NCBI GenBank assembly: GCA_032622095.1
Contig: CP136062.1
Span: 137,162,351 to 137,226,350 of the forward strand
Source of the DNA: Siphonodentalium dalli
Lineage: Eukaryota > Mollusca > Scaphopoda > Gadilida > Siphonodentaliidae
Length of the DNA stretch: 64,000 nucleotides
Reading direction: 5' to 3'
Shown: in pieces, positions 6,020-51,340 of the stretch
How the letters are laid out: each line of letters starts with the position of its first letter
Position numbering within the stretch: the stretch's first letter is position 1
The notes under the pieces: generated by a model
Told to the model about the DNA's origin: nothing
The model's database searches: none
What the model saw: only the letters and a program-made list of their open reading frames with translations
Made by a program: the position numbers and the translations under genes

Positions 6020-6344
6020 TGGTGGGCCCAATTGGAACTTCAAGTGGATTGTGGGTGGGGTGAAGAATCTGGCCAGCGCCTCTAAGGGAAGTTCTGCCCA
6101 AATTTCAAGTGGATTTTGGTTGGGGTGAAGAATCGGACTGGCACCTCGGGGAAGTTATGCCCAAATTTTAAAATTTCAAATGAATTGGGGGTGGGGTGAA
6201 AAATCTGGCCGGCGCCTCTAAGTGAAGTTCTGCCCAAATTTTAAATTTCAAGTGGATTGTGGGTGGGGTGAAGAATCTGGCCGGCGCCTCCAAGGGAAGT
6301 TCTGCCCAACGTTTGAATTTCAAGTGGATTGTGGGTGGGGTGAA
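6020..6344. repeat. Minisatellite of about 70-80 bp units abutting a coding exon
   Basis: About four and a half units of GGTGGGGTGAAGAATCTGG, GCGCCTCTAAGGGAAG and TTCTGCCCAAATTT, then TTTCAAGTGGATTGTG. The last partial unit runs straight into the transposase exon at about 6345 with no visible acceptor between them. Confidence 0.85.
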
Positions 6345-6616
6345 GAAGCAATTACTCAACAAATTTGGAAATGAATTAGTTGAGCTAGATGCAACATACA
6401 GAGTAACAAAATATGCAGTGCCGTTGTTTTTTCTTGTTGTGTGGACAGGAGTAAATTATATGGTGGTGGGCGAGTTTGTGATCGAAGACGAGATAAAGGA
6501 AAGAATCAAGGAGGTCATAAATGTAATTAAGGATTGGAATCCTCAATGGAAACCACAAAACTTTATGACAGATTACTGCGATGAAGAGATGTGTGCTGTC
6601 AGTGAGAATTTTCCAG
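6345..6616 (+). CDS. Exon encoding MULE-type transposase core
   Basis: The translated segment reads LLNKFGNELVELDATYR, then KYAVPLFFLVVWTGVNYM and, later, KPQNFMTDYCDEEM. This order matches the MULE (Mutator-like) transposase domain, with the first catalytic Asp in LDATYR and the second in MTDYCDEE. Mutator-like transposases cut and join DNA; metazoan hosts keep domesticated versions that often carry SWIM fingers. The exon ends at NFP plus one base at a donor G|GTTGGT (phase 1). The upstream edge is uncertain because the frame stays open into the minisatellite from 6259, and no phase-1 acceptor is visible to fit the exon at 5766-5866. The third catalytic acidic residue would lie in a missing downstream exon. 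Confidence 0.65.
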
Positions 6617-7270
6617 GTTGGTATAAGTTTGTTTTAGGTATCTCTAATAATAAAACTTAATTTTGTTTGTGTATCAGGCTATGGGCGACCAAACTGCTGG
6701 ATCCTCTGAGCTGAGGCTGTCCCAATAAATCTGATTAGTCTCCAGGAGAAAACATACTCTCTATATCTCAGAGTGACTAACCGGTTATCAGAAAACCTCA
6801 GTTCTGGATGATAATTCCAAGTCGAAAAAGGATCATAACTCATGGGGGAAAAAATCCAGTTAATTTTGGGTATTGTTCTCAAAGCAAGAAGAAAGTTAAA
6901 CTTCAACAAAGATTTGTGTGGTTGGGGGAGGGGAGGAATGAGAAGGGTCGGGAAGAGGAAGTGAATAATTGGAGCAGGGGCTCCCTCAGATCAAACTCAT
7001 ATTAAAAATCTATCTGTATTTTGGGCTGACTAACACTGTTATAATGGTGTCACTTTTTTCAAATTTTGTAACATGTTTAAAAAAGTATTTTTTTGTTTGT
7101 TAAATTGAGCAAGGTTAAAATTCCAAAAATCTGAAGTTAACAAGCTAAAAAGGTCACTCACCATGTCCTGTGGAATAGTAATGTTGTTGGAATATTTGAT
7201 ATGGAAAGGCCCCGACAACAACATGTATGAACGAATGACCTGTATATTACATGTCACTTTAATAAAAGTG
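6617..7270. other. Presumed intron, no exon found
   Basis: The exon continuing the transposase core is not here. After a TATCAG at about 6680 the phase-1 reading soon meets a stop codon. No other supported feature. Confidence 0.4.
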
Positions 7271-13172: not shown

Positions 13173-13760
13173 ATGATGACAGTTATAATGGATCTCTTAA
13201 TAGCCAATATTTAGTCAAGTTTTTCAAAAACTCGACTTATGGTTTGACGAGGGACGGTTGGCGGGCGGCTGACATAACGAATGCCTTATAACTTTGACAT
13301 TTGTGAACGGATTAAAAAAAATGTTGGTATGTGAGTTGCTTCCTATGACTATTTACTGCCTGCAGAAAATGGGTCACGTCCGAACTTTTTGACAAGAGTT
13401 ATCCATCTTTGATGACTTTTTAGCATTTTTTTCACCTCTAGCGCGATAACTCAATTAAATATCAACTGATTCAAACCATATTTGGTATATAAGTCTCTTG
13501 CAACAATATCTCGGACGAGTTCGAAAACCAGGTTTGTCCGAATGTTTTCCCAGGAGTTATGGGCCTTAGTTTGTCTATTTTTTTCACCGCTAGCGCGATA
13601 AATCAATTAAATATTAACTGATTCAATCCATATTTGGTATACAAGTCTCTTGCAACAATATCTCGGACGAGTTCGATAACCAGGTTTGTCCGAATTTTTG
13701 GGCCTTATTGCCAAGTTATTGGCAGAATTTTTTTTCGACTGCCAATAAACTCGACATAAC
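13173..13760. repeat. Array flank with internal two-copy duplication
   Basis: After the last unit the sequence diverges. A block containing CTAGCGCGATAACTCAATTA, CATATTTGGTATATAAG and ATCTCGGACGAGTTCG occurs twice, near 13438-13545 and 13588-13695, spaced about 150 bp. No coding signal. Confidence 0.75.
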
Positions 13761-17711: not shown

Positions 17712-18020
17712 GTACGTTTCTGTATGATAACAAAAATTAAACTGATGTATTGTGGTGACCTGTTATGTGTTAAGTGTTATCAAATACAGTCCTGCAAACA
17801 ACATAAAACATTTAAACAAAACTATGTATCTGAAGGGGATATATAAATATTTCCAGACCAGATGTTCTAAAAAGTGAACTTACATTCTAAAGACTTCCAC
17901 TGATCTCCAATTCGTTGACCAGAAAGAATCATAGCAAATAGCTCTGCAAACAAGATCAAACAATTTATTACAATAACTTTATTATACATGTATATACTTA
18001 AGCAGGCCATTTCCTTTCAG

Positions 18021-18040
18021 ACACAGCAGATGAAGATGAG
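18021..18040 (+). CDS. 20-bp micro-exon of SWIM/PHD gene
   Basis: Acceptor ATTTCCTTTCAG then two bases and six codons (with the preceding G: DTADEDE) before the donor GAG|GTGAAT. Phases 1 in, 0 out. The same frame could instead read on for about 17 codons to TGA near 18090, giving an alternative C-terminus without the PHD finger. Confidence 0.45.
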
Positions 18041-18829
18041 GTGAATGGGAAAATAAAAGTACCAGATAATAAATATCGCTTCTCATTATGAGAAAAAAAT
18101 TAATTGGCTTACAGTCCAATGTGTTATAAAACGGACTTTAATTAGGACCAGAGTTTAAAAGAAAAACATTCCTGCTTTATGATTTTCACCCGAGTAAAGT
18201 TTTGAATAATTAATCCTAGAGTTTCTTGGAAGAATAATAAAAGTGTAACTGGAGATGCAACCTGTAGGGTCCAGACCAGGTTTTAGTCATATAAAGCGTA
18301 AAATCAAAGATGGCCACTGACAGCCATGATTTTAACAGAATTTCGGATCGAGTGATAACGGAAATTGTTGATTGATGCACACACAGGACAACCATGACTG
18401 ACGCCAAACCATGGCTACAGCTCAAACTTCACTTTGTCAAGTTTAGCTAAAAACGATGCGTGTTAAGGCCAAAATAAAAAAAATATGTGTGTTTGGGGGT
18501 CTCCATACCTACCATATATTAAAGGTGCATACCCTAAACTTTTTATTGGGCCTCTAGTAAATTTATATCTCTATGCCCAGATATTGAGTTTTTGTCAAAT
18601 AAAATTATCAAATTAATATATTTTGACAGTCTATTGGATTATACACCCAAACTTTACATTGATACATGTAGAATTGTATCACCCCAAGTACTCTGAGATC
18701 AAATACAATTTCAATGTCCACAGCATTTGAGAACAAAAAATCTACCTACCTACCATAATTATCAGAGAGGGTGGAACCCCAAACACAGGTATAATTTTGT
18801 TTGGCCTAATTATTCTGGGTTTATTTTAG

Positions 18830-18973
18830 ATACAAAAATCCAAAGCATATAAAAGATGAGGAAGAGATTTGAATCCAAAATTAAAGAACTTGACAGAGTA
18901 AACACCATAAAGGCGTTCCATCCAGACATCTCAAGGGGTGCCCTCATGCTAGCACTTTGTAAACAAAATGCTG
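18830..18973 (+). CDS. Exon of SWIM/PHD gene, basic, with one-base slip
   Basis: Acceptor GTTTATTTTAG. The phase-0 reading IQKSKAYK is interrupted after TATAAAAGATG, and a reading one base away continues as KRFESKIKELDRVNTIK to GALMLALCKQNA and the donor G|GTAAGG. One extra A in the A-run at about 18850-18853 would join both. With that base the length is 145 bp, which fits phase 0 in and phase 1 out as the neighbours require. Confidence 0.6.
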
Positions 18974-19286
18974 GTAAGGTTGATCGTTCGGACAATTATT
19001 TATATGCCATTTTACACACTCCCCACTCTGTGCCAATGCACTCTTATATATGTAGGCAGCCTCACATATATAATATATGTTATTACTAATACTACAGGCC
19101 GAGGCCTCATAACTCGGCCAATGTGGAAACAACCAATTAATAAGTATTTTATTAATTAGCAATTGTTGTTTCAATGGACGAATATATTAACATGGATATA
19201 CCATTGTGTGATTTATTATATATATAGACACACCCACACGAGTCTCAAATACGAGTGAATGCATCGGCACAGAGTATATAATAATG

Positions 19287-19430
19287 CTGCACATATCAAC
19301 ATTAATACACAGCATGTGTTTAGGGACTAAAGAGTAAATGTTCTCATCAGAATATTCACTGCACATATCAACATTAATACACAGCATGTGTTTAGGGACT
19401 AAAGAGTAAATGTTCTCATCGGAATATTCA
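19287..19430. repeat. Perfect-looking 72-bp tandem duplication in last intron
   Basis: CTGCACATATCAACATTAAT to CATCAGAATATTCA is repeated immediately (19287-19358 and 19359-19430) with one change (CATCAG/CATCGG). Confidence 0.95.
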
Positions 19431-19722
19431 CAAGTGAAACAATGGTAGAATTGTGCCAAATGCCAATAGTTAATCAAATTTGTTATTTTCTACCAAAAAT
19501 GGAAAGCGGCGAATCATTAAACATGAATAACTAACTTGTTAAGCATAAAATTAATTTACGATGGTCTTAGTTTTTGATGAATGCAAATTGTTATTTATTA
19601 ACATGCATGTATCAAGGCAAAATCCAAACGCAGAACCTACCATCTTTGAGGCATTTTCAGAAAATAGTATCCTCAATAGTTTTTTGGATCAATTTCAGCT
19701 TAGCATCATCTCGGCATTTCAG

Positions 19723-19919
19723 ATCAAACCAAAGAACCTACAAAACAGAAATACTCTAAATACCCATGTGGTGTGTGTTCGGAGGAATGTATTGTGGACT
19801 GTGTTGCATGCGATGCATGCAACGGGTGGCACAATTACAAGTGTGTTCAGCTAAACGGAGACGAGATACACCTAAAAGATCAGGACTGGTTTTGCAGCTC
19901 ATGCAAGAGGGAGAGATAA
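19723..19919 (+). CDS. Last exon: C-terminal PHD finger
   Basis: Acceptor CGGCATTTCAG; the exon enters in phase 1, the phase left by the exon at 18830-18973. It encodes a basic linker (DQTKEPTKQKYSKY) and then a PHD-type zinc finger: CGVC, CDAC, GWHNYKC and WFCSSC. It ends in TAA at 19917-19919. PHD fingers read histone H3 tails in chromatin proteins and also occur at the ends of transposon-derived proteins. The longer listed-frame ORFs here (19561-19854, 19766-19951) are shadows in other frames. Confidence 0.7.
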
Positions 19920-21396
19920 AACTGACAATTTTCGTAATAGTGATTCTTTAATATCTACTATTAACTGATCTTAATTGTTTTCACTTCTGATAGGGATATA
20001 TCCAGGAAATGTATAATGCCTAGGATGTTTCAAATAGTCTCTAAATGAAACCAGGGAATGAATTCATTATGATACTATATACATGTATGCTGATCAACAA
20101 GTAGAATCAATGATGTTTAGGATTAGGAAATCAAAGTGTTTTTTCTCGTCCGTATAATAGTTAATTTGTGCTTCAGAATGTTGGTGCCCATAAGTTGGCC
20201 ATAACATAACCTGGATATGCCTGACTTCTTATGGTGGTGTTATCGACAGTTTTATATTATTTATATTATTAAAACTGAGAAAACAAATCATTTGTTTAAT
20301 GGGGGGAGGGGGCGCCCCATGTCTAAGGAAATTCTAATGAATCAGCCAATCCACACTGATTATCCTGAAAATATGTTAAACATACGGATGGCGTCGGGTA
20401 TGCTGTTAAAATATTCACCTCCAAAAACCGCCATAAACAGAAAGAATAGTAAAATATAGACAGACTTTGTTCTTATATATATTTTAATATTCCTTCTGTT
20501 AACGGCAATTTGAACAAATGCGAATGTCTCTGTAACGAACACCGCCCGTTAGAGATGGGCGGTACTCGGTATTTACCGTGCGGTATCGGTAGGCCTACCG
20601 GGTACCAGCGTACTTTCGGGGTCAAAATAAGCATACGGGGTGGAATAAGAGTACAGGGTGGACAATTCTGCTAAATCCGGGGCGGAATAACAGTACAGGG
20701 TGGCAATTTACAACACGGAAGCAAGTCCATCTGAAATGCTATACCCGGTATAAGGTCAATAATATATATTTCTCAAATTCTACAGTTTGCTGTTATATGA
20801 GTTACCAAACAGAATTCCATTAACATGTTTGCATTATCTTTTCCTGATCTGAGTAAAGGCTCCAGCAATTCTGATAGGACTATAGTATAAACTTCTTGAC
20901 AATTCCACTTTTTAAATAAACATACGGACCCAAATAAGCACCATACATGGCCTAAAAAAAGACGTTTGCTTCCGCTAACCCGACCGACCCTATTTTAAAA
21001 CCCCGACCCTAAACTTTTTATTGCCATCGCAAAAGAAATAAAAATTGGACCCAAAAAAAATATATAAATTGTATTTAAATTTTTTTTTATTATAATTATT
21101 TTTAATTTAGGTTCCAATTCATATCATAACAAGATGCAAAACATTTATATATTTATATATATTGACATATTAAATTTAAGTTTACAAAACAGTTGGAATC
21201 ATACTGTAAAATATGTTTGGCTTTATCTAGCTTTTATCTGTGAAAACTTAAAATAGGTTTGTTATCATTCAGCCTTCAGTATTTCAATCAAATACAGTAC
21301 AGGAACATTACCAATTTGATCAAATCAACATCTCATAATACCAAATGAAAAATTAACATAGAGATTAGTACGGTACTATAAATAGTAATTACTAAC
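19920..21396. other. Intergenic, no gene; contains old repeat
   Basis: A GC-rich patch near 20555-20705 holds repeated GGGGTGGAATAA-like and ACGGGGTGG words. A block at 20930-21010 containing GGCCTAAAAAAAGACGTTTG and CCGCTAACCC occurs in reverse complement at about 28480-28560. No coding exon supported. Confidence 0.5.
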
Positions 21397-21828
21397 TTAA
21401 AGGCACGTGCGGCCTTAATTGTCAAAAATATTCATATTTGTTCCAAACACCGTTAACAGAAAAACAGTAAAACGCATACAGTTCCGTTCATATATACCAT
21501 GACCATCGCGTAAACAGCATGTTATCATAAAGATCTACTACCGTCGAAATGTCGATTTTCGACAGATTTCCCATTCTCGAGTTTGCCCGTTTCGCCGCGC
21601 CGCCATATTTTACCCCAGCAAGAGCCTGATTATGTTACAGAAGACAACACAATGCTACTGGCTAATCACACACAAATGACATAAACGCTCTTTATTAGTT
21701 CCATATTAGGTATTCACCAACAAAGAACGCTCTTTATGTTTACCATCATAATATAAACAAACACCAGAAAAGTAACTTTTCACTCTTTTGTTTACATAAC
21801 AATGGTCAAACATATGACCATAACATAC
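21397..21828 (+). mobile_element. TTAA-target MITE, copy 1, right end missing
   Basis: Starts TTAA then AGGCACGTGCGGCC and follows the 494-bp family to AACATAC at about 21828, where it stops and retrotransposon coding sequence begins. It carries about 65 bp, including GTCGAAATGTCGATTTTCGAC and a GCCGCGCCGCC stretch, that the other copies lack. Confidence 0.85.
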
Positions 21829-22403
21829 ATAATCTTTTAGTAGTGGAAATATCTGTAGAACCACCGATCTGTTTAATTAATGTGTATATGCATTCAAGGG
21901 GAGATGCTGATAGTGAAGACAGATTTGGATCATATCTAGATGAAGTCACAGAAATTTCAAAGAAATATAGAGATACCCATATAATAATTTACTGTGGGGA
22001 TTGGAACGCTTCTCTTTTGGTGAGGGATAATAACAGGAGATATGTCAAGCTTGATTGTGCAGCAGATGAGATTGGAGATTGGAGTATCGTATGCATGCGG
22101 CCAACATTTTACCACACAAATGAGAGGGACTTGTCTCAAATTGACTACATCTTTATCCACAAGAAATACCAGGAATTACTAATAGATATTGCAATAGCTG
22201 AAAGAAGTGAATTGAATACATCTGATCATGTTCCAGTCACAGGGAAGATTAAATTGATTTTATCCGGTGAGAGAAAAGAAGAATGCAATAAAGTACCAGC
22301 CCGTATAAAATGGGAGAATTGCAACCAACAGCTATATGAGGACTATGTAAGATGTCATCTTAAAAGTGGGAAATCACAGTCACAGTTTGATATGGGTCTA
22401 ATG
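21829..22403 (+). pseudogene. Non-LTR retrotransposon: endonuclease segment
   Basis: An open frame reads VYMHSRGDADSEDRF, then IIYCGDWNASLL, IGDWSIVCMRPTFYHT, LSQIDYIF and TSDHVPVTG. These are the exonuclease-endonuclease-phosphatase motifs of non-LTR retrotransposons: GDWN, the S-Q-I-D-Y-I-F signature and the terminal SDH. This enzyme nicks target DNA to prime reverse transcription. The N-terminal half of the domain is missing, cut off at the MITE copy at 21828. The segment ends at the 8-bp duplication of the inserted hAT-like element and continues in frame at 23342. Confidence 0.85.
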
Positions 22404-23333
22404 CAGTGTTTCCGCTAGGGGGTAGGGGAGTGGGGCCGTTTTGTAGATATGGGAAAACACGAACACCTGCTTCTAAAATTTAGAAAAGTGCAACACTAGA
22501 AATGCATTGTCCAGCAGAACGCGAATTACGATTATAATTCTGGTATGTATACATTCTCAAAATTAAAACAAGAAATGTAACAATTTATGTGATACAACAG
22601 TCAGTCAATTAAGTTGATTAACTACATTATTGTGGTTGAACTGAGTGAAATAAAAACAAACTTTTAACTGAGACTAAATTTAGATTTATTTTTTATTTCC
22701 GATGGGTAGAATAATTAAATGTACTATGATATTTCGTACCAGTTAAAAGTCAACTATACTCTTGAGGAGGTGCCTCGCCAAGTCATCAAGGGAAGTTCAT
22801 GACCAACAGTAACATTCACTCGTCTTTTAAAAATTCATTCGATCTACGAACACTGGTTTAAAAAGCTCGGAACTATTTTGTTGTTGTATTCAATCATTTG
22901 GGGTCACACAATTGAAATTACCTCGAGAGAATTGCTGCTATCGGCGGGAAAGTGTTGGCTATGATGCTTCATTGGGCGGGAGAGGGGGGTCACACAATTG
23001 ATATTGACTCGAGATAATTGCTATATAAAGATTTGTACTTGGTAACCAACGAAGCTATGACGCTTCATTGGTAGAGTTACGTCACAAATATCGCATTCGC
23101 ATCGTACACAAAATATATCGTTTCCGGCTATATATTACGAATCGATATACTGAAGGTTTTACGGTTACACGAAATTCCAGGGTTTTCAAGGAGTTTGCAT
23201 TAAAACAAAGGGTTCAAGGGCCCTGGGAGGGGAATGCGTCAGGGGAAAATCAGAGAAAAACTTTGCTAGGGGAAAACTTGGCTAGGGGAACGGGGCCGTC
23301 AAAGGGACCCCCTGCCGGTATAGCGGAATCCCT
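22404..23333. mobile_element. hAT-like non-autonomous element in the retrotransposon
   Basis: Left end CAGTGTTTCCGCTA, right end TAGCGGAATCCCT(G): inverted termini with two mismatches. The 8-bp direct repeat GTCTAATG flanks it at 22396-22403 and 23334-23341 (the first G of the right copy could equally be the terminal base). Length 930 bp. No transposase. ORFs running out of its right end (23068-23400) are chance. Removing it with one duplication copy keeps the retrotransposon frame. Confidence 0.9.
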
Positions 23334-24857
23334 GTCTAATGATAGAAGATCTCTCCAAAATTCTCAAAACAGCTGCAAAAAAGAGTATTCCGAAGTTTAA
23401 AGAGATGGTCAAGGTTAAGAAGAAGGAACGAGTTTGGTCAGAAGAGATTGCTGCAGCGGTGAAGATGTCTAAGAAAGCATTTTGGGAATGGAAGACGCAG
23501 GGACGACCTAAATCTCCAACAAATATATTATTGATGAATAGAAAAAGGACTTCGAGATTGCTGAGGAGTGCTCAAAGACTGGAGGCTGTTAACAATAGAA
23601 AGATGATGATTGAAGAGATTATACAGGCAAAGGGGAAAAACTCGTCACTATTCTTCAAATTAGTGAATAAACAGCGACAAAATAAATCAACAATCACTAA
23701 GGAACTATTTGTCAATGGAAGGACGCTATCATCAAGTGAAGATATCAGAGAGGGATGGGCAGAGTATTTTGCGGGTTTGGCATCTCCATTGGAGGATCCT
23801 TGATTCAATGATACATATTATAAAGAAGTTGACAAGGACATATTAGCGATTGAATCTCTCTGCAGTGATCAACATATGCCATTACCGACAATCTCTGAAA
23901 TTGAAGTTGAAAAGATAATAAGCAGTTTGAAGAATGGGAAATCAAAAGATCATCTAGGACTTCAAGCAGAGCATATCAAAATGGGAGGGCTGCCGGTCAT
24001 CAAGTTTTTAACTGACTTCATCAATCAATGTTTTGAACAGAAGAAAGTCCCAGATATTTTGAAGATTGGAGTTCTTACACCGGTACATAAGAAAGATGAA
24101 AAGATTCTACCAACAAAGTACAGAGGCATCACAGTCACTCCTATTGTCCTTAAAGTGATTGAAAATATTCTGATCAAAACATCATCAGAGAAATTAAACC
24201 TGACGCAATCCAAGCTTCAAAAAGGATTTACCAAAGGGGTGTCTGCAACTAATGTGAGTGTAATCATCACAGAAGTACTGAATGAAGCAAAGGAATCAAA
24301 GAAACCATTACATCTTGTTACGCTTGATACTCAGAAAGCTTTCGATGTTGTGCCACATACACATCTGATGAGAAGATTATATCTGGATGAGGTACAGGGA
24401 GATGAGTGGCTATTGATTAACAACATATATAAGGACATGACGAGAGTAAAATGGGAGAATGAACTGCCTCATCAATTTGATATACAACAGGGAGTGAGAC
24501 AAGGAGGAGTCCTATCAGCTGTACACTACAAGAGGTTCAACAATCCAATGCTGCTGAATATTGAGCGTCATTACAACGGTGCGAGGATCGGACATATTCA
24601 GATTCCACATACAACATGTGCTGATGATGTAGCACTCTTGTCTCATGATGGGTCGGAAATGAATGCAATGCTGAAGGAGGTGGAAGATTTCTCACGCTTA
24701 AATAGATACAAGATAAATCCGATGAAGAGTGCTGCCTTATCACTAAACATAAAAGATATACCTGCATTGGAGACTTTTATGTTTGAAGAAAAACCGATTG
24801 TTGCAGAAGATAAGTTAACACATGTTGGGCTGGAAAGAAATATTGGAGGAAAGTTAA
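23334..24857 (+). pseudogene. Non-LTR retrotransposon: linker and reverse transcriptase
   Basis: After the linker (KILKTAAKKSIPKFKEMVK) one TGA at 23801-23803 interrupts the frame. The same frame then gives the reverse transcriptase: ISSLKNGKSKDHLGLQAEH, YRGITVTPIVLKVIENI, LVTLDTQKAFDVV (first catalytic Asp), IQQGVRQGGVLS, and TCADDVALLSH, where the usual Y of YADD is Cys. The enzyme copies element RNA into DNA at the nicked site. The frame runs to the TTAA at 24854-24857, where a MITE is inserted. The Cys and the stop suggest an inactive copy. The clade was not assigned; the C-terminal finger and overall order suit the I/jockey-like group. Confidence 0.85.
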
Positions 24858-25849
24858 AGGCACGTGCGGCCTTAAAGGCACGTGCGGCCTTAATTGTTGA
24901 AAATATTCATATTTGTTCCAAACACCGTAAACAGAAAAACATTAAAACGCATACAGTTCCGTTCATATATACCATGACCATCGCGTAAACAGCATGTTAT
25001 CATACAGACCTACTATATTTTACCTAAGCAAGAGCCTGATTGTGTTACAGAAGACATCACAATGCTACTGGCTAATCACGCACAAATGGCATAAACGCTC
25101 TTTATTAGTTCCATATCAGGTATTCACCAACAAAGAACGCTCTTTATGTTTACCATCATAATATAAACAAACACCAGAAAAGTAACTTTTTATGCTTTTG
25201 TTTACATAACAATGGTCAAACATATGACCATAACATACTGTTTATTAGATATTTCTTATTTGTATACGGACAAAGTATATCTACATTTTGATGTTCTTTC
25301 TGTTTGTGGCGGTTTTTGACGGGTGGATATATTTTCACAGGATACCCACCGCCAAGGCCAACCGTGTCTTTAATTGTTGAAAATATTCATATTTGTTCCA
25401 AACACCGTAAACAGAAAAACATTAAAACGCATACAGTTCCGTTCATATATACCATGACCATCGCGTAAACAGCATGTTATCATAAAGACCTACTATATTT
25501 TACCTAAGCAAGAGCCTGAGTGTGTTACAGAAGACATCACAATGCTACTGGCTAATCGCGCACAAATGGCACAAACGCTCTTTATTAGTTCCATATCAGG
25601 TATTCACCAACAAAGAACGCTCTTTATGTTTACCATCATAATATAAACAAACACCAGAAAAGTTACTTTTTATGCTTTTGTTTACATAACAATGGTCAAA
25701 CATATGACCATAACATACTGTTTATTAGATATTTCTTATTTGTATACGGACAAAGTATATCTACATTTTTATGTTCTTTCTGTTTGTGGCGGTTTTTGAC
25801 GGGTGGATATATTTTCACAGGATACCCACCGCCAAGGCCAACCGTGTCT
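24858..25849 (+). mobile_element. Two nested 494-bp TTAA MITEs (copies 2 and 3)
   Basis: Outer element: 24858-24875 plus 25374-25849 (18+476=494 bp). Inner element: 24876-25369 (494 bp), inserted at the TTAA that lies just inside the outer left terminal repeat, with TTAA duplicated at 24872-24875 and 25370-25373. Outer duplication: TTAA at 24854-24857 and 25850-25853. Left terminus AGGCACGTGCGGCC; right terminus read inward AGACACGGTTGGCC. No coding capacity. Confidence 0.95.
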
Positions 25850-26897
25850 TTAAATGTTGATGAGTTAATCCAGAGAGGACGAAGAACTGTTTATGCGCCG
25901 ATGGGTGCGGGTCTACATGGAAGAAATGGTCTGGCTCCAAATGTATCAATTAATCTATGGAATGTTTATGTGCTGCCAAGAATGTTATACGGGATTGAAT
26001 GTGTCACATACAGTATGACTGATTTGAATTTGCTAGAAATTGATCAGAGAAAGGTGCTGAAACAGTTGCAGTATTTACCACCCAGGACTCCTAATGCTGC
26101 TGTTTATGCTTTGCTTGGCTGTCTATACCGATTGAGGCTGTTATCCACAAGAAGATGTTGTCCCTATTCTCTAGTATTATCCATAACAAGGGTTCTGTGG
26201 AAATCTCCATTGCCGAAAGACAGCTTGCTATGAAGAATTTGGACTCTACTAGCTGGTTTGTGTCTGTAAGAAAGGTTTTGTGGATGTACGAGTTGCCATC
26301 AGTTTTTGAAGTAATGGAAAGCCCACTTGATAAGAAGTCCTGGAAGGAGTTGGTAGACAAGAAGGTGCATGAGCTTTGGGAAGGGAGGATCAAGGAGGAT
26401 ATGAAGTTGAAATCTTGAACCCAGATACAGTACAGATTGGTTCTCCTCATCACTTATGGTTCAGTTTACACTCCAATGTTCATGATGTTAATTTGGCAGC
26501 AATAAAAGCAAGACTCCTGACTGGTACCTATACACTCCAGAGAAATAGATCTGTTTACAGTCGGCAAAAGCAGAGTTCGGTGTGTCAACTGTGTAAAGAT
26601 GGAGAAGAAACAAGGGAGCACTTTCTTACAGCCTGTAGACATGACCGAATGATTGATGCAAGAGAGAATGCAATCAGAAAACTGCAATCTATTATCCCTG
26701 ACTCTACTCTTACTAACATACTGGCAGATTCTAATCTACTAACTCAGCTCATATTGGACTGTTCAATGTCAGTAATAGCGGAGATGATAAACCTACACAT
26801 GGATCAGTTGGTGTTAAATTCTATTGAGATGTGGAGCAGACAATATATTGGAAGACTCCATAGCATCCGCTCCTCAATCCTTACCAGATGTCAGTAG
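25850..26897 (+). pseudogene. Non-LTR retrotransposon: C-terminal part
   Basis: The frame resumes exactly after the TTAA with NVDELIQRGRRTVYAPMG and continues LWNVYVLPRMLYGIE, the thumb-like region of non-LTR polymerases. Two frame changes follow, near 26115 (into a reading with IPIEAVIHKKMLSLFSSII) and near 26412 (lost T, into LNPDTVQIGSPHHLW). The tail has a Cys/His motif CQLC, EHFLTAC, as in many I/jockey-group elements. It ends SILTRCQ and a stop at 26895-26897. Three defects show the copy is dead. Confidence 0.8.
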
Positions 26898-27085
26898 AAG
26901 ATTCCCATTTCATTATTCCAGTTCTTTACCGATCCTAATCATTATATGAAATTCAGATTATATGAAATCAGTGTATATAGAGAATATAAATCAAAGAAAT
27001 CAAAATTACTCTGACTCAACCGAATCAGAGGTGCTGCGACAAATAAACGCAGGGATTTACGAAGACAAGACAAGACAACACTGTT

Positions 27086-27208
27086 TATGCGATATTTCTT
27101 ATTTGTATACGGACAAAGTCTATCTACATTGTTTCTGTTTGTTGCGGTTTTTGACGGGTGGAGATATTTTCACAGGATACCCACCGCCAAGGCCAACCGT
27201 GTCTTTAA
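27086..27208 (+). mobile_element. TTAA MITE, copy 4, right end only
   Basis: About 120 bp matching the right end of the family, from TTTATGCGATATTTCTTA to AACCGTGTCTTTAA. The left three quarters are absent. It lies about 190 bp after the retrotransposon stop codon. Confidence 0.85.
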
Positions 27209-27299
27209 TAGACATTGTTTCTGTACTACATGTATATTATGTATGTGTCTCACATGAATTTGATAAAATAGCCTATTATATGAATTAGAGTGATAATGG

Positions 27300-27395
27300 T
27301 AAGTCTCATTTCAAGCAGGATAAGCATAATCCATTGAACCAAAAGATATCTGACAATAACTTATACCGGTAAGCATTTCCTATCGATACATATAT
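27300..27395. repeat. Dispersed repeat, inverted match to 14100-14240
   Basis: Contains GCATAATCCATTGAACC and GATATCTGACAATAACTTA, the reverse complement of the block near 14130-14210. Confidence 0.75.
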
Positions 27396-27617
27396 AACAA
27401 AAATCCAAAGTTATGCTTGAGAAACTTGATCAAATTGATCTCTCAGTAAAATTCAAAATACTGACTCAAAGAGCCCTAGATTAGCTCTAAATTCAATGGA
27501 TTTTCAAAATTTTACCAGGGGGAGAACTCCCACCACCAGCAGGGGGTCACCCCCTCCCAAACCTTCCTCCGCTCAGGCCTTCAGGTTATGCCTTCGGCAT
27601 ATCATTGCCCAAAAACA

Positions 27618-27787
27618 GGTGTCCCCAAAAAATACCTAGATCCTTCACTGAATGCGGAGAAGGTGGTGTAACTGGTGTTGTGAAGCCATCATTAAGAGAT
27701 CGGTACAAGACGGTCACTCCAATATGTGAACAGTGCAGTGGTGCTGGACTGACTCCAGTTGTCGCCAGACCATATGGGAAATATTAG
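27618..27787 (+). CDS. Possible terminal exon of an unknown gene
   Basis: After an acceptor-like CCAAAAACAG the frame encodes FTECGEGGVTGVVK, RDRYKTVTPICEQCSGAG and a basic end before TAG at 27785-27787. The Cys pair CEQC looks protein-like but no family is recognised, and no partner exon was found upstream within this repeat-rich block. Confidence 0.25.
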
Positions 27788-27940
27788 GATTATCAAAGAC
27801 TATATTAGTATATAGACTAGTAAATATTAAAGCATATGTAAGATTGAATTCGAGTTTCTAGTTCCTCTGTCATCTGGGTTACCTGATTGGGGCTAAGAAC
27901 TGCATAGTTTGGGTTATTGACAAGTATTATACAGTTATTT

Positions 27941-28442
27941 TTAAAGGCACGTGCGGCCTTGGCGGTGGGTATCCTGTGAAAATATATCCACCCGTCAAAA
28001 ACCGCCACAAACAGAAAGAACATCAAAATGTAGATAGACTTTGTCCGTATACAAATAAGAAATATCGCATAAACAGTATGTTATGGTCATATGTTTGACC
28101 ATTGTTATGTAAACAACAGCATAAAAAGTTACTTTTCTGGTGTTTGTTTATATTATGATGGTAAACATAAAGAGCGTTCTTTGTTGGTGAATACCTGATA
28201 TGGAACTAATAAAGAGCGTTTATTCCATTTGTGTGTGATTAGCCAGTAGCATTGTGCTGTCTTCTGTAACACAATCAGGCTCTTGTTTAGGTAAAATATA
28301 GTAGGTCTTTATGATAACATGCTGTTTACGCGATGGTCATGGTATATATGAACGGAACTGTATGCGTTTTAATGTTTTTCTGTTTACGGTGTTTGGAACA
28401 AATATGAATATTTTCGACAATTAAGGCCGCACGTGCCTTTAA
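27941..28442 (-). mobile_element. TTAA MITE, copy 5, full length, inverted
   Basis: TTAA (27941-27944), body 27945-28438 of 494 bp, TTAA (28439-28442). Unlike the other copies, both termini read AGGCACGTGCGGCC; the usual AACCGTG end has been replaced, perhaps by gene conversion. Confidence 0.95.
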
Positions 28443-29791
28443 AGATACTGAAAAAAATAGTTAACAAAAAAAACAGAGTTAAGCCTACCTACCTACCCTA
28501 ATTTTTTCAGCTCGTTAGCGGAAACAAACGTCTTTTTTAGGCCTTATTTGGACCCCAAGAGTAATACCGATTTACCGTACCGAATCAAAACTAAAAATAC
28601 CGAATTTTCGGTACTGAAATTATTCATGTGTGTCTTCGTATTAAGTAAAGTTTCTCAGTAAACAGTTTTGATTCGGTACTTTAATTAAAATTAATCTCAG
28701 AATTATACAAATCAGACCATAACAAAGAACCCGACTGGTAAAAAGCATCCACTTGATAAGAGCTCAGCTGACCGTGATCCGTTATCAGTTTGACATGCCT
28801 TGAGCGAGCAGAAGGAATAAACATTCACAGATGGCTGACCTAGTTACGGGCCTAACAGTCAATGCAGTTGTTGGAATAGATACACACTACACAGTGTATC
28901 AAAGAAGCTGTGCTGTAACTTATTGCCACATTGCAATGTCGTATATATTAGATCAAAAACACGACAAAGGTGGGATAATGCAATGGCATTAGCATGCAGA
29001 CATGGTGATCGATAACTCTCTCGGTTGGCCATTGCAATATGATAAAAGACTAAGAGATCACTGATATTAATTTTTGTACCTCGCTTTTTTAAAGCCACAA
29101 TTTGAATGTCATTCTAGATCTATTTATGATTTTATCACCAAATCTGTCATACCTTTTCATGAAAATGAAATAAAACCTCATCAGAAGATGTTCAAAATTT
29201 CTTATATGCATGAAACAGGCAATGGCGATATTCCAGTCCAGAGGGGGAGGTCAAGTGACAAATTGCAAATCTCTGCAGCAATAGTTATATATGAAGCAGT
29301 AGTCTGGTAATAAACCAGCCATAACATTTAACTCGCAGCTGCACTTGGTAAATTGTGGCTGTTTTTGCTGTAATTTGTCAGATTTTTTTTAATGGAATTG
29401 CAACACTTGACACCTTCTGGCTCTGCAGAAATTGCTCGGGTACCACCTTTGGGATGAATAGTTTCTATGTTGATGCACATTTATCTGGTAGCATGGCACC
29501 AATTTGCTACATTTTATAATTTTCTGTATTATTCACGAATGTATTTTATAGGTTTTATTTTCAAAATTATGTAGGTTTTACAGTTTGAACATTATTCCGG
29601 GGAGGTCTATGGATTCTGTGTTGGAGTAAGTTCAACTCGGCCACCATTTGATAGGTGGGCTCTCTGCTATGTTTGTAGAGGACTGCTCAGTGAAACAAAA
29701 CAGAACCCATATTCACTGCCGGTGTGGTTGCATCTCTTAATTTTCTATAATTTATGCACAACATCTCCCACACTTTCATTCATCAAAACTC
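28443..29791. other. Intergenic, no supported gene
   Basis: Begins with an old repeat (28480-28560, inverted match near 20930-21010). A 78-codon ORF at 29074-29310 has no recognisable domain or splice context. Confidence 0.45.
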
Positions 29792-29794
29792 TTA

Positions 29795-32305
29795 GGTCCG
29801 AATCGGCATCTCTGGTTTAGACTAGGTTTTATTCTAGACCAGGTTTAACTCCAGTTTAAACTAGGTTTAAGTAGGGTTTAAACTTGGTTTTACAGTAGTT
29901 AAACCAGGTTTATGGGAGTAAAACTGGGTTTTAGCGTACTTAAACCAAGTTTTGTGATAAACTCAGTTTAAGTTGAAACTAGGTTTTATTAACGTGATAA
30001 AGTTATGGTAATATTACTAATTGTTTGTGGTGAATTGGCTATATAATCATCAGTATAAGCTTATGTATATATGATTTATACGTACCATACGTCTCGCCTC
30101 GAACATACACCTTTAAATATACTTTGAAAAAAATTCAATGTTAAACCACCCTACCCCAGGTTTGACTAAAACCTAGTTTTTTGGGTTTAATTATTCGGCC
30201 GTTATTTTTCGCCCAATATTCATGTTGTTTCTTCGTGAATATGGGAGTGTTTATTTTGAATTGGGGGAGGCGTTTATGCGCGGGCGTTTGTCACTCAATG
30301 TAGATACAATAGAGTCTTAGTGGAATTCGGGGAGGCGATGTCGGTACTTATGAGATAAATTCTAACAAAATATGTGCCAGTGTGATGGATGATTTCTTGC
30401 TATATATGTCTGTTTGCAATTCGCTCGTTTTGATGTCGGTTTGGCGGCTTGGAGCATGGCGGGATCGGACTGATCAGATTGACACGTTAGACACGAACAT
30501 GACTTTTGAAACTGATTCCTTATTCACAAAAAAGGTCTCTTTCGGTCAATTTGACGCATGGGTTGGTGGCCCGCCCAAATACCCATCAGAGACACCCAGC
30601 CTTCACCCGGGGGAGGGTAACGGCCACCCTGAGGGGGTGGAGTATGGACTATTTTGGAGAACTGTACGGATTTCGGCCAATTTGATAGTATGGGTGGGTG
30701 GCTCGCCCCAAATAACCCATAGAAACACCCCACCCCTCACATCCGGGGGGGGGGGTACCACCCGAGGGGGTGAACGTGGGATGTGGACCATTTTCGAAAC
30801 TTGTAAGGATTTCGGCCAATTGACGGCATGGATGGATGGCCCGCTCAAATGTCCCATAGAAACAGCCCACCCCTGAACGCTGGGGGAACCAAACAGGAGG
30901 TGAAAATGGGGTATGGACCATTTTCGAGAACGGTAAGGATTTCGGTCAATTTTACGTCAGCAGTGTGCGTAGCCCGCTCCAACTACCCCCTAGAAACACC
31001 CTCACCCGGAAGTACCACCCCGAGGGGGTGAAATGGGGTATGGACCATTTTCGAGAACGGTGGGTGGCACATCCCAAATGCGCCCCATAGAAACACCCCA
31101 CCCCCACCCCGGACCCCATTTTCACCCGCTCGGGTAGAACCACCCGCGGTAAGGGTGGGGGTGTTTCTATGACTATATTTGAGGTCGGGCCGCCCAACAA
31201 TGACGTCATATTGGCCGAAATCCCTACCGTTCTCGATAACGGTCCATACCCCATTATATGGGGTATTTGGGGCGTGCCACCTACACATGCCGTAATATTA
31301 ACCAACAGGGGCATGTTTTTGCGAATAATGAATAAAATGCTCCATACCCCATTTTCACCCCAGCAGGGTGGTACCCTCCAGGGATGAGGGTATGGTGTCT
31401 ATATGGGATATTTGGAGCGGGCCACACACCCCTGTCGTCAAATTGGCCGAAATCCTTACCGTTCTCGAACATGGTTCATATCCCATCTTCACCCGAGGGT
31501 GGCGACACACCCCACCCCGCCCGGATGTGAGGGGTAGGGTGTTTATATGCGTTATTTGAGGTACCCTTCCCCGGGGGTGAGGGTTGGGGTGTTTCTATTC
31601 GGTATTTGGGCGTACCCAATTTCCACCTCCTCTGGTGGGACCCCTCCCCCCGGTGAGGGGTGGGTAGGGGTGGTTCTATGGTGTATTTTGATCGTGCCAC
31701 CCACTCCTGCTGCCAAATTAATTAGCCTAAATCCTTACCGTCCATACCCCTGTTATCCCGGGGTGAGGGGTGATGTTTCTATCGGGTATTATAGGCGAGC
31801 CACCCTTTCATGCCGTCAAATTCGCCGAAATCCTTCCCGTTCTCAAAAATGGTCCATACCCCATTTTCACCCGTCCGGATGGTATGGTCCCCCGGGGTGA
31901 TGGTGTTTCTATGGGGTATTTGTGGCGGGGCCCCACCTATGCCCTCAAGAGATATTTTGGAGTTCCAAAAGTCACGTTCGTCCATGATATTAGATAATAT
32001 CTAACCGTTATACAACAGACCGTGCATTCGTCGTGATTTCTCAAAGCGCACGGGTTATTCCCCTGATTAGGAGAGTATATAGCGACAACAGGTCGCTTGA
32101 CCGGACAATGAATTGACAAGCTTAGCGATAATAAACAGACAGACCACGCCTCCTATTCTTGCAATTGGACAAGTGTGGCCCACAGGTAACGCAATCGACC
32201 AAATCTATGTCGTCCCAGCGGTGGAGAAAAACTTGGTTTTACTACTAAACCCAGTTTAAACTGGTAGTTTAAACTAGGTCTAAACTGGAGATGCCGATTC
32301 GGACC
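29795..32305. mobile_element. Harbinger-like non-autonomous element, 2.5 kb
   Basis: Termini are inverted repeats: left GGTCCGAATCGGCATCTC, right its exact complement GAGATGCCGATTCGGACC. They continue imperfectly into subterminal AAACTAGGTTTA-type motifs on both sides. Flanking TTA at 29792-29794 and 32306-32308 is the 3-bp duplication typical of PIF/Harbinger transposons, whose termini also begin with GG. No transposase ORF. The interior holds the orientation-switching GC-rich array listed separately. Confidence 0.85.
30530..31960. repeat. GC-rich array that flips orientation in the middle
   Basis: Units of roughly 110-130 bp contain TTTCGAGAACGGTAAGGATT, TCGGCCAATTTGACG, CCCATAGAAACACCC and CCGAGGGGGTGAAATGGGG. 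From 30530 to about 31075 they run in one orientation. From about 31080 to 31960 the same unit is read in reverse complement (AAATCCTTACCGTTCTCGA, GGGTGTTTCTATGGGG). The result is a palindromic array with a centre near 31075-31140. Many proline/glycine-rich ORFs on both strands are by-products. Confidence 0.85.
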
Positions 32306-32308
32306 TTA

Positions 32309-33466
32309 GTGCCTAATTTTATGAATATGTCATTCTTAAATGATCTTAATGATTTAAAATGGTTTCACTAGCAAACCATGTTCGGTACCGGTAACTCTGA
32401 AATTTATCTTGACATTCTTAGGAAATTTCAACACATACTTTAATAAGGAAATATATCTCTTGAAGTCCATTATAAGCTATATTTATTCCTTTGGTCATTT
32501 GAAATTTAGAAATTGTTTACAGATAACATCTATTAATCCGAGGACCATTGTGGTAAGTCTGCCCATTTATGGGTCAGACTTTTAAATGTTATCCTCGGTG
32601 CGATGGGCGAGTCTTATTACATCATCAAGACCACTTCTTCTTCTTTTTTTTATATATTTTATTAAATAAATTATAACGAAATGAAACTGAAATTAATCTT
32701 TCAAATTAACGTTTGACACTGTTTAGATATGTTCTCATATGTTTAAAATCGGCTGAATACTCTCAGGTGCCTAATAATCGTGATGGCCTAATAATGGTGA
32801 TGGATGGTGATTTATGCTGAAAATAATAATAGTGATGGCAATTTCACTCTATGTCTCAATGCTAAATAATAGTGATCATTGGAAATATTCTCCAAAATTA
32901 ATAATCGTGCTGACACTATTATTAGGCACCTGAGAGAACAATCTAAACTGTAATATCTTATGGTCCATTCAAATTGTAGGACCTTTTTGTAATATGTTTT
33001 TACCTCGCACCAAATAAATCTATCTATAACCTAGTTTAAAAAAAATCAATATAAAATAATAAAAAAAATTCTAATGGAATATACTCCAAAAAGGGAGGCC
33101 AGGGTACCTCGAATCTGTTTCCAAATTTCTTTTAAAAATACGCAATATAATGGGAAGCATTCGGACTCTAAAACACATGCACAGAGCAGTTCATCGATGA
33201 TTCACTTTATAATAAAGACCCAAGGTTAAATAAGTTGGTTGATATTATAAAATTGCAGCGGATAATCAGGACAAAATTTGGATCAATAAAAATCGCTTTC
33301 AAACATAACTGATGTAACATCACTAAAATACTCACTTGGTAGATGAAATATGTCTTCTCGCCATAATTAAATAATTTTGTTTCATTGACACGCAAATTGT
33401 TGGCAGATTACGTTGGATTTTGTTGCGACCACGCTGAAACCCAGCTAAATCAAAATGGCGAAGCGC
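32309..33466. other. Intergenic, no gene
   Basis: AT-rich. A short segment near 32765-32935 repeats words such as CCTAATAATCGTGATGG and AATAATAGTGAT. Nothing else supported. Confidence 0.5.
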
Positions 33467-38417: not shown

Positions 38418-40498
38418 TATCGTTGCAGTGAATTGATCTGGGCTTCGCATCACGTCTCGTTGAAGAGTTCGATGTGTATATACTAGTTTATTATATGACT
38501 ATGAATATTCTTTCCTAAATACCACTATTGTTTGACGATCTAATCCATATCGTCGGATCACACTGAGTGAGATTTCCCCGGATCAAATCAGATCACACTC
38601 CTACGGAAATTGCCGAGATGAGCCGAATTAACGACGACGAACTATTTATCCGTTAAAAATAGACTACGTAACCAGGTACGCAGTGGCTGTGTTCGTTCTC
38701 GCCCCCCTTATTACCGGTAAGAAATTTAAACTGCTGCTCATGCGTAGACCGGAAAAGGGTACGTTCCTTTTGTCCCCGTACAGTTCCGGGTAATATTTTT
38801 GTTATTAACTTTCGTCTGCTAATGTTCAGTACGCATCCTGATCACTCGCAAATTTTGACATCGAAAGGATGTTTTTATGAGATTTTTCTGTGGAAGAACC
38901 TGAAGAGGATTCTACAAATATTATCAGTGATGACTCTGATGTAGCTCAACTGACAGATATTAACACTTCCTTATCAAATTCTAATGAGGATCATGATGCA
39001 GACAATCAGGTTGACAGTTCCAGTGCAAGTATAAATGTTGCACAAACTGATATGATTATGAGCTGTTCAAATGAAAGTGCTACATGTGCGGTACCAAATG
39101 TGGAATCTAAAGTTCAAGAAGTTGTGGGCCTACAGTTATCGGTGCCCTCGTTGCCTGGTCGAGGAGGCGATAACACTAGTTACAGTACTAACAGTAACAT
39201 CAATGCACCAATGAATAAAGCTCCAACATATGTGAATGTTTCAGAACTGGAAGTTAATGAGTTTGAGGCAAGAATGCGCAACAAGAATGCGGACTGGAAG
39301 ACACAGGGTGCAATAAAACAATTTTCCCAGTGGCTAGTAGGAAGAAATGAACTCAGAGCCATTACTGAGCTATCGCCAACTGAACTAGATAACAACATAT
39401 CAACATTTCTTCACTCTATTATGAAAGCGGACGATATCTGGAGGAGAGGGGATACAGTTATGACATATGTTCAGATTATGTATTTCGATCGTCACGCGCA
39501 ATTCTGGCATCAAAGCGGAAAGAGTTGAAGCAGAAGGGAAAGGGCAGTAAACCACATGCAGCTGATCCTATATCAACAACAGTGGAAGATATTTTAAAGG
39601 ATGAAGGATGTATAGGCCTTGATAGTCCAGTGTGACTCCAAAATAAAATGTGGTTGCAGAATACAATGTTGTTCGGGCTTCGAGGTGTAACCGAAAATCG
39701 AAAGCTGCGATGGGGAGATATAAAGCTGAAGAGGGAATTGAGTACCTTGAACTAAGTGAGCGGGATACAAAAATGCGAACGGGAAATAATATATAGTGAC
39801 ATGCGGAAATTTAAACCGAAGCAGATTGCCGTTCCCGATGACATTGAGAACTGCCCAGTAAATGCTTACAAGGAGTTTGCTACCAGAAGACCCGACGGTA
39901 TGAATGAGAATGATAGCCCCTTCTACCTTGCAATAAATCACAAACGCAAGCCAGATGCCATTATATGGTACCAGAAACAGGCTCTTGGTGTTAACACAAT
40001 TCTTAACATTATGAAAAATATGGCAGGAAAGGCGGACTTACCAGGGAAGAAAACAAACACCAGCGCACAGAAGACAACAGCTACTCGCTTATCACATGCT
40101 GGCAGTGCACCAACAACCATCCGATAACAGTTAACAGGACACCGAAATGTTCAAAGCTAAAATAACTATGCAGTTGCTTCAAATGAGATGCAACACTCCA
40201 TGAGTGACATTTTATCCAATGCATCAAGATCTGTTCCTCCTTCACACAGTCCTGTTCCTACAACTCCTAACATCCCTGCAAGCTCTTCTCTTATAGTCCA
40301 GTACATATCAACAACCAGCCTCTGGAATTACACCAGCACAACCGACATGACGAAAATTCGAAATATACCGATGGTCGCTTGTTTCCAGGAGCGTCGATTA
40401 CAAATTGTAAAATCAATGTCTGCAACTACTATGTTTCAGCAACAGCACAGAAGCGAAGAAGAATCCGTGTGTTTGAGTCGGACAGTGACACTGAGTGA
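38418..40498 (+). mobile_element. Degenerate Crypton-type element (tyrosine recombinase)
   Basis: ORF 38890-39528 encodes an acidic N-terminal region and then APTYVNVSELEVNEFEARMR and GAIKQFSQWLVGRNELRAI, a core-binding-like segment. After a frame change at about 39530 a second stretch (with stops near 39634 and 39753) carries MLFGLRGVTENRKLRWGDIK, the RPDGMNENDSPFYLAINHK block and a C-terminal catalytic region with TRLSHAGSAPTTIR, then TGH-R and N-Y-A residues before MQHSMSDILSNASRS. The His-Arg and Tyr positions fit a tyrosine recombinase of the DUF3504/Crypton group, which moves DNA through a covalent Tyr intermediate. A further frame yields GRLFPGASITNCKINV and the end RRRIRVFESDSDTE with stop at 40496-40498. 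Several frame changes make this copy inactive. Confidence 0.75.
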
Positions 40499-49549: not shown

Positions 49550-51340
49550 AAAATAGATAATGAAATAACATGAATAGGGTGAATGCCCCTTTCAAATTAC
49601 ACGATGGTGTGTTACATGCCTCCAATTTGATAATGTTCAGATTAAGTTTTGCCCTATGATAAGGAAAGTGTCCATGACACACTAGCTTATTAACTTGTGA
49701 TATTGACTATGAATTGAATTCGCATCTACATGGTATTAAATGGCATGACCAATGAAAAATTCCATAATAATTGATGCATCAGTGTGAGCTGTAGGGGTGC
49801 TATGGATTTATATGTCTTATATAGGATCATATAGTGTGTAGTGTTATCACTGAACTCCCAAGATGGCTGATTGTGGCCATGTTTTTCATGAGATTCACCC
49901 CAAAATGACTCGTTCTCATCTGCATGTCAATGTGTAAATGTCCAAGACAAATTTCACGATGATCGGACTAATGCTGTGTCCTCTAGCCTGTGCTAAAGGA
50001 TGAAATTTAGAAATCCAATATGGCTGCCGGCAGCCATGTGTTATGCCATTAGTCCCAAATGAGTTGTTCCCGTCTAGACGCCAACGTCATGATCCATGGG
50101 AAATTTCATGATGATCGTTGCATCGATACGGTATATAGGCCGCGCGATAGGAATCGGGACTTACAGACTCACAGACAGATGACGTGCCATGGCAATAGCT
50201 TAGCTGGACTTAGTCAAGTTAAGCTACAATGCATTACGCTGGGGTATTTAATGCAATACCCTGCAAATTTGTGAGTACACTGAATTTTGATTTTGGCTAC
50301 CCCAAATTGCCAGGATATTGCATGAAATGTAAAAACAAATCCCACAATGTGATCAATGAAGTACGTGCATATGATATATACATGGTGCATTGTGCATATG
50401 CATGAAAAATGAAATACTACAATATGGCCATAGTACCATCCATTTTCCACCACGGGGGCAAGGTCATTTTCACGGCAGTGATATATGACATTCCAATATT
50501 TTAATCAGCTGATAAATAGAGAAATGAAAGTGTCAATGACACAGTAGCTTAACTTGTGACACGGACTATGAATTGAATTTGCATCTACATGTCATCAGCC
50601 ATGAAATATTTCAGGATGATTGATGCATTAGTATGAGTTGTAGGAGGGACTATTGACTTATATAGCATTATCACTGAAATCCAAGATTGCCGAAGGCGGC
50701 CATTTTTCTTGGTGGATTCACGCCAAAATTACATCTACATTTCAATGTCGACTACCATGACAAATTTCATGATGCTCGGACCAATACTGTGATCTCTAGC
50801 CCGTGCTAAATGATACAATTTTTAAATCCATGATGGCTGCCGACGACCATGTTTTTTATGCGAATGAGCCCAAAATGACTCGTTCCCATCTATATGCCAA
50901 GGTCATGATCCATGGAAATTTAATGAAGATCGCTGCATTGGTACGGGCTCCAGGCTGTATTATGGATGTATATAGTGTTATCACTGAAATCCAAGATGAC
51001 GGACGGTGGCAATGTTAATTGAAGGATTCATGCCAAAATTACTCGTTCCCATATGTTAGTGTCAACCTCCATGACAAATTTCATGATGATTGGACCAATA
51101 ATGCGACCTCTAGCCCGTGCTAAAGATTTAATTTTGAAATCCAAGATGGCTGCCGACGGCCATGTTTTTTATGAAAATGAGCCCAAAATAACTCGTTCCC
51201 ATCTAGATGCCAAGGTCATGATCCATCAAACATTTCATGATGATCGGTGTGGGCTCTAGGCCGTGCTAAAGGACGTATGGACAGACGACGCGCCACGACA
51301 AGTTAAGTTAAGCTAAAAATGCTATTATTAGGTCAGGCGA
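49550..51340. repeat. Diverged repeats with CAAGATGGCTGCCGACGGCC core
   Basis: A unit of about 140-170 bp recurs near 49850, 50005, 50680, 50815, 50985 and 51135. It consists of AAATCCAAGATGGCTGCC, CATGTTTTTTATG, AATGACTCGTTCCCATCTA, TGCCAAGGTCATGATCCATG and TTTCATGATGATCG. A larger duplication repeats a whole block (AGTGTCAATGACACA, TAGCTTAACTTGTGA) from about 49670 at about 50530. ORFs inside are chance. Confidence 0.8.

What the first reader, a model, noticed from the sequence alone, without database searches (positions are those of the whole stretch)
24854..25853. MITE inserted into the terminal repeat of its own sister copy
Both nested elements are exactly 494 bp under a model where the inner one jumped into the TTAA just inside the outer left terminus. 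This explains the doubled left terminus and the missing one at the second unit. Because TTAA sits at a fixed place within the terminus, the family carries a built-in target for itself and could form tandem arrays by transposition.
Basis: seen in the sequence. Interest (0 to 1): 0.7.

Follow-up and report, generated by a model that had tools for sequence, protein, structure and literature searches.

The report
Mobile element nested inside its twin
A short non-coding jumping element appears to have landed inside the left end of a near-identical copy of itself, making a head-to-tail double element; it is a clean but ordinary case of a transposon nesting in its own family.

Summary
Window 24854-25853 reads TTAA-L14-TTAA-L14-TTAA-body-TTAA-body-TTAA. 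Placing one 494-bp element into the other at every TTAA of the occupied site, both orientations and both roles, gives the window in one case only: second body outer, TTAA at its base 15, same orientation. Five more copies lie in the window; all seven have TTAA at both ends; six of seven left ends carry the inner TTAA, c8 has TTAG. None of the other five left ends is doubled. The outer element sits in a LINE remnant whose frame stays open across the joined flanks; that LINE splits an older copy of the family, so the nest has four levels. Inner and outer share six substitutions absent from the other five copies: close sisters, as a hop from a near relative predicts, but also as a duplication predicts. 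Ends (TTAA, AG...CT) fit Kolobok better than piggyBac. Array-building or self-preference is untested: one dimer, no trimer, no genome held. Random TTAA choice gives such an event with probability about 0.02 per window like this. A known kind, modest interest.

The parts
24854..25853 (+). Compound element: outer MITE with inner MITE inside it, with the TTAA target copies at both ends
24854..24857 (+). TTAA, left target-site copy of the outer element (target in the LINE)
24858..24871 (+). 14-base left terminus of the outer element, cut off from its body by the inner element
24872..24875 (+). TTAA, left target-site copy of the inner element (originally the TTAA at base 15 of the outer element)
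24876..25369 (+). Inner MITE, 494 bp, complete
25370..25373 (+). TTAA, right target-site copy of the inner element
25374..25849 (+). Rest of the outer MITE, without its left terminus
25850..25853 (+). TTAA, right target-site copy of the outer element
21829..27079 (+). Non-LTR retrotransposon (LINE) remnant that hosts the compound element; RVT_1 match in the ORF 23876-24850
21397..21828 (+). Left part (c1) of an older family copy, split by the LINE
27080..27208 (+). Right part (c4) of the same older copy
27941..28442 (-). Family copy c5, 502 bp with both TTAA
42975..43458 (-). Family copy c6, 484 bp with both TTAA
54404..54905 (+). Family copy c7, 502 bp with both TTAA
62119..62624 (-). Family copy c8, 506 bp with both TTAA; the most diverged of the seven; TTAG in place of the inner TTAA

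Best explanation
A non-autonomous TTAA-specific DNA transposon (a 494-bp MITE, most like Kolobok by its ends) inserted into a TTAA of a LINE remnant. Later a closely related copy, moved by a transposase supplied from elsewhere, inserted in the same orientation into the TTAA at base 15 of the first copy. That TTAA was duplicated, the outer element was split after its 14-base left terminus, and two left termini in a row followed by two bodies remained. Shown: the anatomy, the TTAA at every joint, the fit of the model, the close kinship of the two copies. Inferred: that it was transposition, the transposase and its superfamily, and the donor of the inner copy (a subfamily member elsewhere, or the same insertion on the sister chromatid or homologue).
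For: Of all TTAA positions in the occupied site with about 50 bases of flank on each side, both orientations and both roles, only the insertion at base 15 in the same orientation gives the window. Both elements are then 494 bp, and four other stretches of the family measure 502, 484, 502 and 506 bp with both TTAA. All seven copies have TTAA at both borders. The LINE frame stays open from 23876 across the joined site to residue 453. Doubled left end and headless second unit need one event. None of the other five left ends is doubled. Outer has 5 private substitutions and inner 1, in line with an older outer copy.
Against: Inner and outer share six substitutions absent from the other five copies and differ at only 6 of 502 sites, which a duplication of one element would also give. 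The age asymmetry is weak (5 against 1, one-sided p 0.11, two-sided 0.22). Each of the two repeats (18 and 480 bp) could by itself be a duplication through TTAA: the overlap at each joint is exactly TTAA. No empty or outer-only allele was seen, and no second dimer.
Confidence: 0.85

Rival explanations
1. Two separate local duplications in one element: an 18-bp slippage of TTAA-L14 and a 480-bp tandem duplication of TTAA-body, each through TTAA microhomology.
For: The three TTAA of a single element divide it into exactly the two segments that are doubled, and the overlap at each joint is TTAA and no more. The two bodies share six substitutions not seen in the other five copies. Slippage is the explanation given for tandem MITE arrays in corals (PMC2872659, section read).
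Against: Needs two independent events with all borders on TTAA. 0 of the other 5 left ends in the window has the 18-bp doubling alone, and 0 of the other 5 copies has a second body.
Confidence: 0.1
2. Unequal crossing-over between copies, or integration of a circular form of the element, as proposed for KolobokP multimers.
For: Multimers of Kolobok-type elements with one outer pair of target duplications are described in molluscs and attributed to these routes (PMC9587614, section 15 read).
Against: Joining at the element ends would leave a full left end between the two bodies; here it is absent there and doubled at the outside instead. Single copies in the window show no long terminal direct repeat on which to cross over.
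Confidence: 0.02
3. Assembly artefact: two alleles of one element joined head to tail.
For: The bodies differ by 1.2%, a difference that alleles of a highly variable invertebrate could show (recalled, no call).
Against: A false join would not be expected to put TTAA on every border and an extra 18-bp terminus on the far side, nor to leave the LINE frame open across a single TTAA.
Confidence: 0.03

Closest known systems
Kolobok superfamily and its T2-MITEs in Xenopus (PMC6004289, passages seen; termini rule from PMC9587614, passages seen)
   Same: TTAA target duplications; ends that begin AG (5'-RR...YY-3'); short non-coding members with many similar copies.
   Different: No transposase or sequence homology was tested here; T2-MITEs have a terminal AGGRR motif, here it is AGGCA/AGACA. 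Membership rests on ends alone.
CMITE and CMITE-IN, piggyBac-type MITEs of corals (PMC2872659, passages and section 12 seen)
   Same: TTAA target; tandem arrays of MITEs; CMITE-IN arose by insertion of a MITE into a TTAA lying between two direct repeats of another TTAA-bounded element.
   Different: Ends there carry CC[C/T]T; the tandem arrays were attributed to replication slippage; the host element of CMITE-IN was not described, in the passages seen, as a copy of the same family.
KolobokP multimers in molluscs (PMC9587614, passages and section 15 seen)
   Same: Head-to-tail multimers bounded by one pair of target duplications; likely the same superfamily.
   Different: KolobokP has long terminal direct repeats and an endonuclease gene, and multimers of the form (LTDR-INT)n-LTDR; none of this is seen here.
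Double insertion of transposable elements as origin of tandem dimers (McGurk and Barbash 2018; not held; known from passages in PMC6795482, and recall)
   Same: Tandem copies made by a second insertion of the same family at the same place, a proposed seed of satellite DNA.
   Different: Described there for Drosophila elements; here the site is a TTAA inside the left end, which leaves a doubled terminus and a headless unit.

Membership tests
MITE | Short, with terminal inverted repeats | tested here: met
   494 bp; 12 of 16 bases matched after TTAA, reached by 4 of 20000 random pairs
MITE | No coding capacity | tested here: met
   No ORF of 100 aa or more lies wholly inside a copy in 18000-33000, none of 120 aa or more in the whole window; ORFs that overlap copies run in from or out into the LINE
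MITE | Several similar copies with target-site duplications | tested here: met
   Seven copies, all with TTAA at both borders; pairwise differences 1.2-9.0%
Kolobok superfamily | TTAA target-site duplication | tested here: met
   7 of 7 copies
Kolobok superfamily | Ends 5'-RR...YY-3' | tested here: met
   AG at 6 of 7 left ends (c7 has TG), CT at 7 of 7 right ends; rule
Kolobok superfamily | Moved by a Kolobok transposase with matching ends | not testable with these tools
   No genome held
piggyBac superfamily | TTAA target with terminal motif CC[C/T]T | tested here: not met
   TTAA met, but ends are AGGCACG/AGACACG; rule
KolobokP | Long terminal direct repeats with their own inverted repeats in the monomer | tested here: not met
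   Alignment of the window copies shows none; definition
Double-insertion tandem dimer (self-nested element) | Two same-family copies joined by insertion, with target copies at both levels | tested here: met
   a two-duplication origin is not excluded

The most novel reading that the evidence does not exclude
The TTAA at base 15, which the most diverged copy lacks, is a built-in landing pad: excised copies preferentially re-enter the left end of their own sister (for instance the copy on the sister chromatid), giving ladders of n left termini followed by n bodies, all but one headless, which could seed tandem arrays without recombination.
Probability: 0.07. Interest if true: 0.55.

Novelty: new member of a known kind. 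Interest (0 to 1): 0.22.

Why it matters
It is a clear fossil of apparent self-insertion by a TTAA-specific MITE, with a signature (doubled left end, headless second unit, TTAA at every joint) that can tell insertion from crossing-over and from a single duplication. Counted over a genome, that signature would show how often tandem transposon copies, proposed seeds of satellite DNA, arise by transposition alone. The four-level nest also orders four events in time.

Tried and rejected
The left-body pattern gave 24 stretches in viral contigs and 93 in genome contigs (of which 80 are in the printed table); blastn of the compound and of the inner element at E 1e-5 against the file of fetched loci (117 records, counted) found none related, so these are chance hits of a short AT-rich pattern. 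The right-end pattern and the 18-base left terminus gave 0 in viral contigs. The LINE RT region gave no relative in viral contigs (6 stretches matched a pattern, none confirmed), and the LINE has no second copy in the window, so no empty LINE site from another copy could be shown.

Rejected: piggyBac (ends), KolobokP (no long direct repeats), circle integration or end-to-end joining (would put a full left end between the bodies), and insertion at any other TTAA of the site, in the other orientation or with roles swapped. No clean target duplication of the LINE in the older copy could be read at the joints.

Rows dropped before a count: the script printed 75 columns shared only by inner and outer; 69 of these are gap columns made by insertions in c8 and in the split copy, and 6 are substitutions; only the 6 are counted. 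The simulation gives every copy both internal TTAA sites, although c8 lacks the first and c6 and the split copy lack the second, so its chances are slightly high.

Literature: ten searches of the held open-licence library showed me no paper with this exact anatomy; most hits were seen as listings only, and passages were seen from six papers. This is no claim that none exists.

Full report
Observation. The stretch 24854-25853 reads TTAA-AGGCACGTGCGGCC-TTAA-AGGCACGTGCGGCC-TTAA-body-TTAA-body-TTAA. The 18-bp left unit is repeated exactly, and the 480-bp units 24890-25369 and 25370-25849 differ at six positions. The left-end motif is found 8 times in the window at up to 3 mismatches against 0.03 expected from shuffles, the right-end motif 7 times against 0.06.

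The family. Seven copies lie in the window: outer, inner, a copy split by the LINE (c1 and c4), c5, c6, c7 and c8. All seven have TTAA at both borders. The six copies not split by the LINE, with the outer one rejoined, measure 484-506 bp with both TTAA. The ends form an imperfect inverted repeat, 12 of 16 bases after TTAA; 4 of 20000 random pairs from the window do as well. No ORF of 100 aa or more lies wholly inside a copy in 18000-33000, and none of 120 aa or more in the window. This is a MITE. A diverged relative of its right part lies at 20389-20477, 79% identical over 92 positions.

Test of the insertion model. Starting from the LINE flanks with one TTAA, I put in the outer element and then the inner one at every TTAA of the occupied site with about 50 bases of flank on each side, in either orientation and with either body as outer. 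One case gives the window: second body outer, TTAA at base 15, same orientation. The outer element was itself assembled under this model, so the exact fit is partly by construction; the independent content is that both elements come out at 494 bp and that no other site, orientation or role fits. The LINE frame stays open across the joined site, from 23876 to residue 453, so the compound occupies one ordinary insertion site.

Rivals. Two independent duplications (18 bp and 480 bp), each through TTAA, would give the same letters; the overlap at each joint is exactly TTAA. They need two events, and none of the other five left ends is doubled. In their favour, inner and outer share six substitutions seen in none of the other five copies, and differ from each other at 6 of 502 sites, against 14 to 45 differences from the others. 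Under transposition the donor must therefore have been a close relative: a subfamily member, or the same insertion on the sister chromatid or homologue. Private changes are 1 in inner and 5 in outer, which agrees with an older outer copy but is weak (one-sided p 0.11, two-sided 0.22). Circle integration or end-to-end joining would leave a full left end between the bodies, which is not seen. An assembly error cannot be excluded without reads but would not be expected to put TTAA on every border.

Surroundings. The host of the outer element is a non-LTR retrotransposon remnant: RVT_1 at E 5.8e-25 in the ORF 23876-24850; a zf-RVT match at E 0.00044, below its curated cut-off, in 26376-26894; no Pfam match in 21843-22415. 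Copy c1 ends near element position 367 where the LINE begins (21828/21829), and c4 starts near element position 366 where it ends (27079/27080). The simplest reading is that the LINE inserted into an older copy of the same MITE family, although no clean target duplication could be read. The order of events is then: old MITE, LINE into it, outer MITE into the LINE, inner MITE into the outer one.

Is self-targeting special? The inner TTAA is present in 6 of 7 left ends; c8, the most diverged, has TTAG. A second internal TTAA lies at base 67 in 5 of 7 copies. With 491 TTAA in the window and seven insertions choosing among TTAA at random, the simulated chance of at least one self-insertion is 0.084 at any internal TTAA, 0.043 at base 15 and 0.022 at base 15 in the same orientation. 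One event at that level, picked because it was striking, is no evidence for a preference. One dimer is seen in six loci, and no trimer.

Classification. TTAA targets are shared by piggyBac and Kolobok. piggyBac ends carry CC[C/T]T (PMC2872659, passages), which is not met. Kolobok ends are 5'-RR...YY-3' (PMC9587614, passages), and the full-length Xenopus Kolobok elements listed begin AG (PMC6004289, passages). Here AG is found at 6 of 7 left ends (c7 has TG) and CT at 7 of 7 right ends. By its ends the element is most like Kolobok; no transposase was identified.

Known background. Tandem MITE arrays in corals were attributed to slippage (PMC2872659, section 12). KolobokP multimers in molluscs were attributed to unequal crossover or circles (PMC9587614, section 15). 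Double insertion of transposons was proposed as a seed of satellites (McGurk and Barbash 2018, seen only as cited in PMC6795482; not held). The present case is a self-nested MITE with an unusually clear signature: a new member of a known kind.

Noticed in passing
21397-21828 and 27080-27208, around 21829-27079: The LINE that hosts the compound element lies between the two complementary parts of an older copy of the same MITE family, which makes a four-level nest.
   Followed up: partly
27941-27958 (right end of c5) and 62607-62624 (left end of c8): Ends are exchanged between sides: c5 has the left-type terminus at both ends, c8 a right-type terminus at its left end, as by conversion between inverted repeats or an older symmetric form.
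   Followed up: no
20389-20477: A diverged relative of the right part of the MITE, 79% identical over 92 positions, with a second weak match to the left part nearby; perhaps a related shorter family.
   Followed up: partly
21541-21604: A 64-bp insert in copy c1, GC-rich in its second half, found nowhere else in the window.
   Followed up: partly
6259-6660 and 39756-40127: ORFs that match ZSWIM1-3 RNaseH-like and MULE transposase domains, and DUF3504, respectively.
   Followed up: no
50659-51246, 13425-13699, 30638-30951: Further tandem duplications with units of 313, 152 and 130 bases.
   Followed up: no
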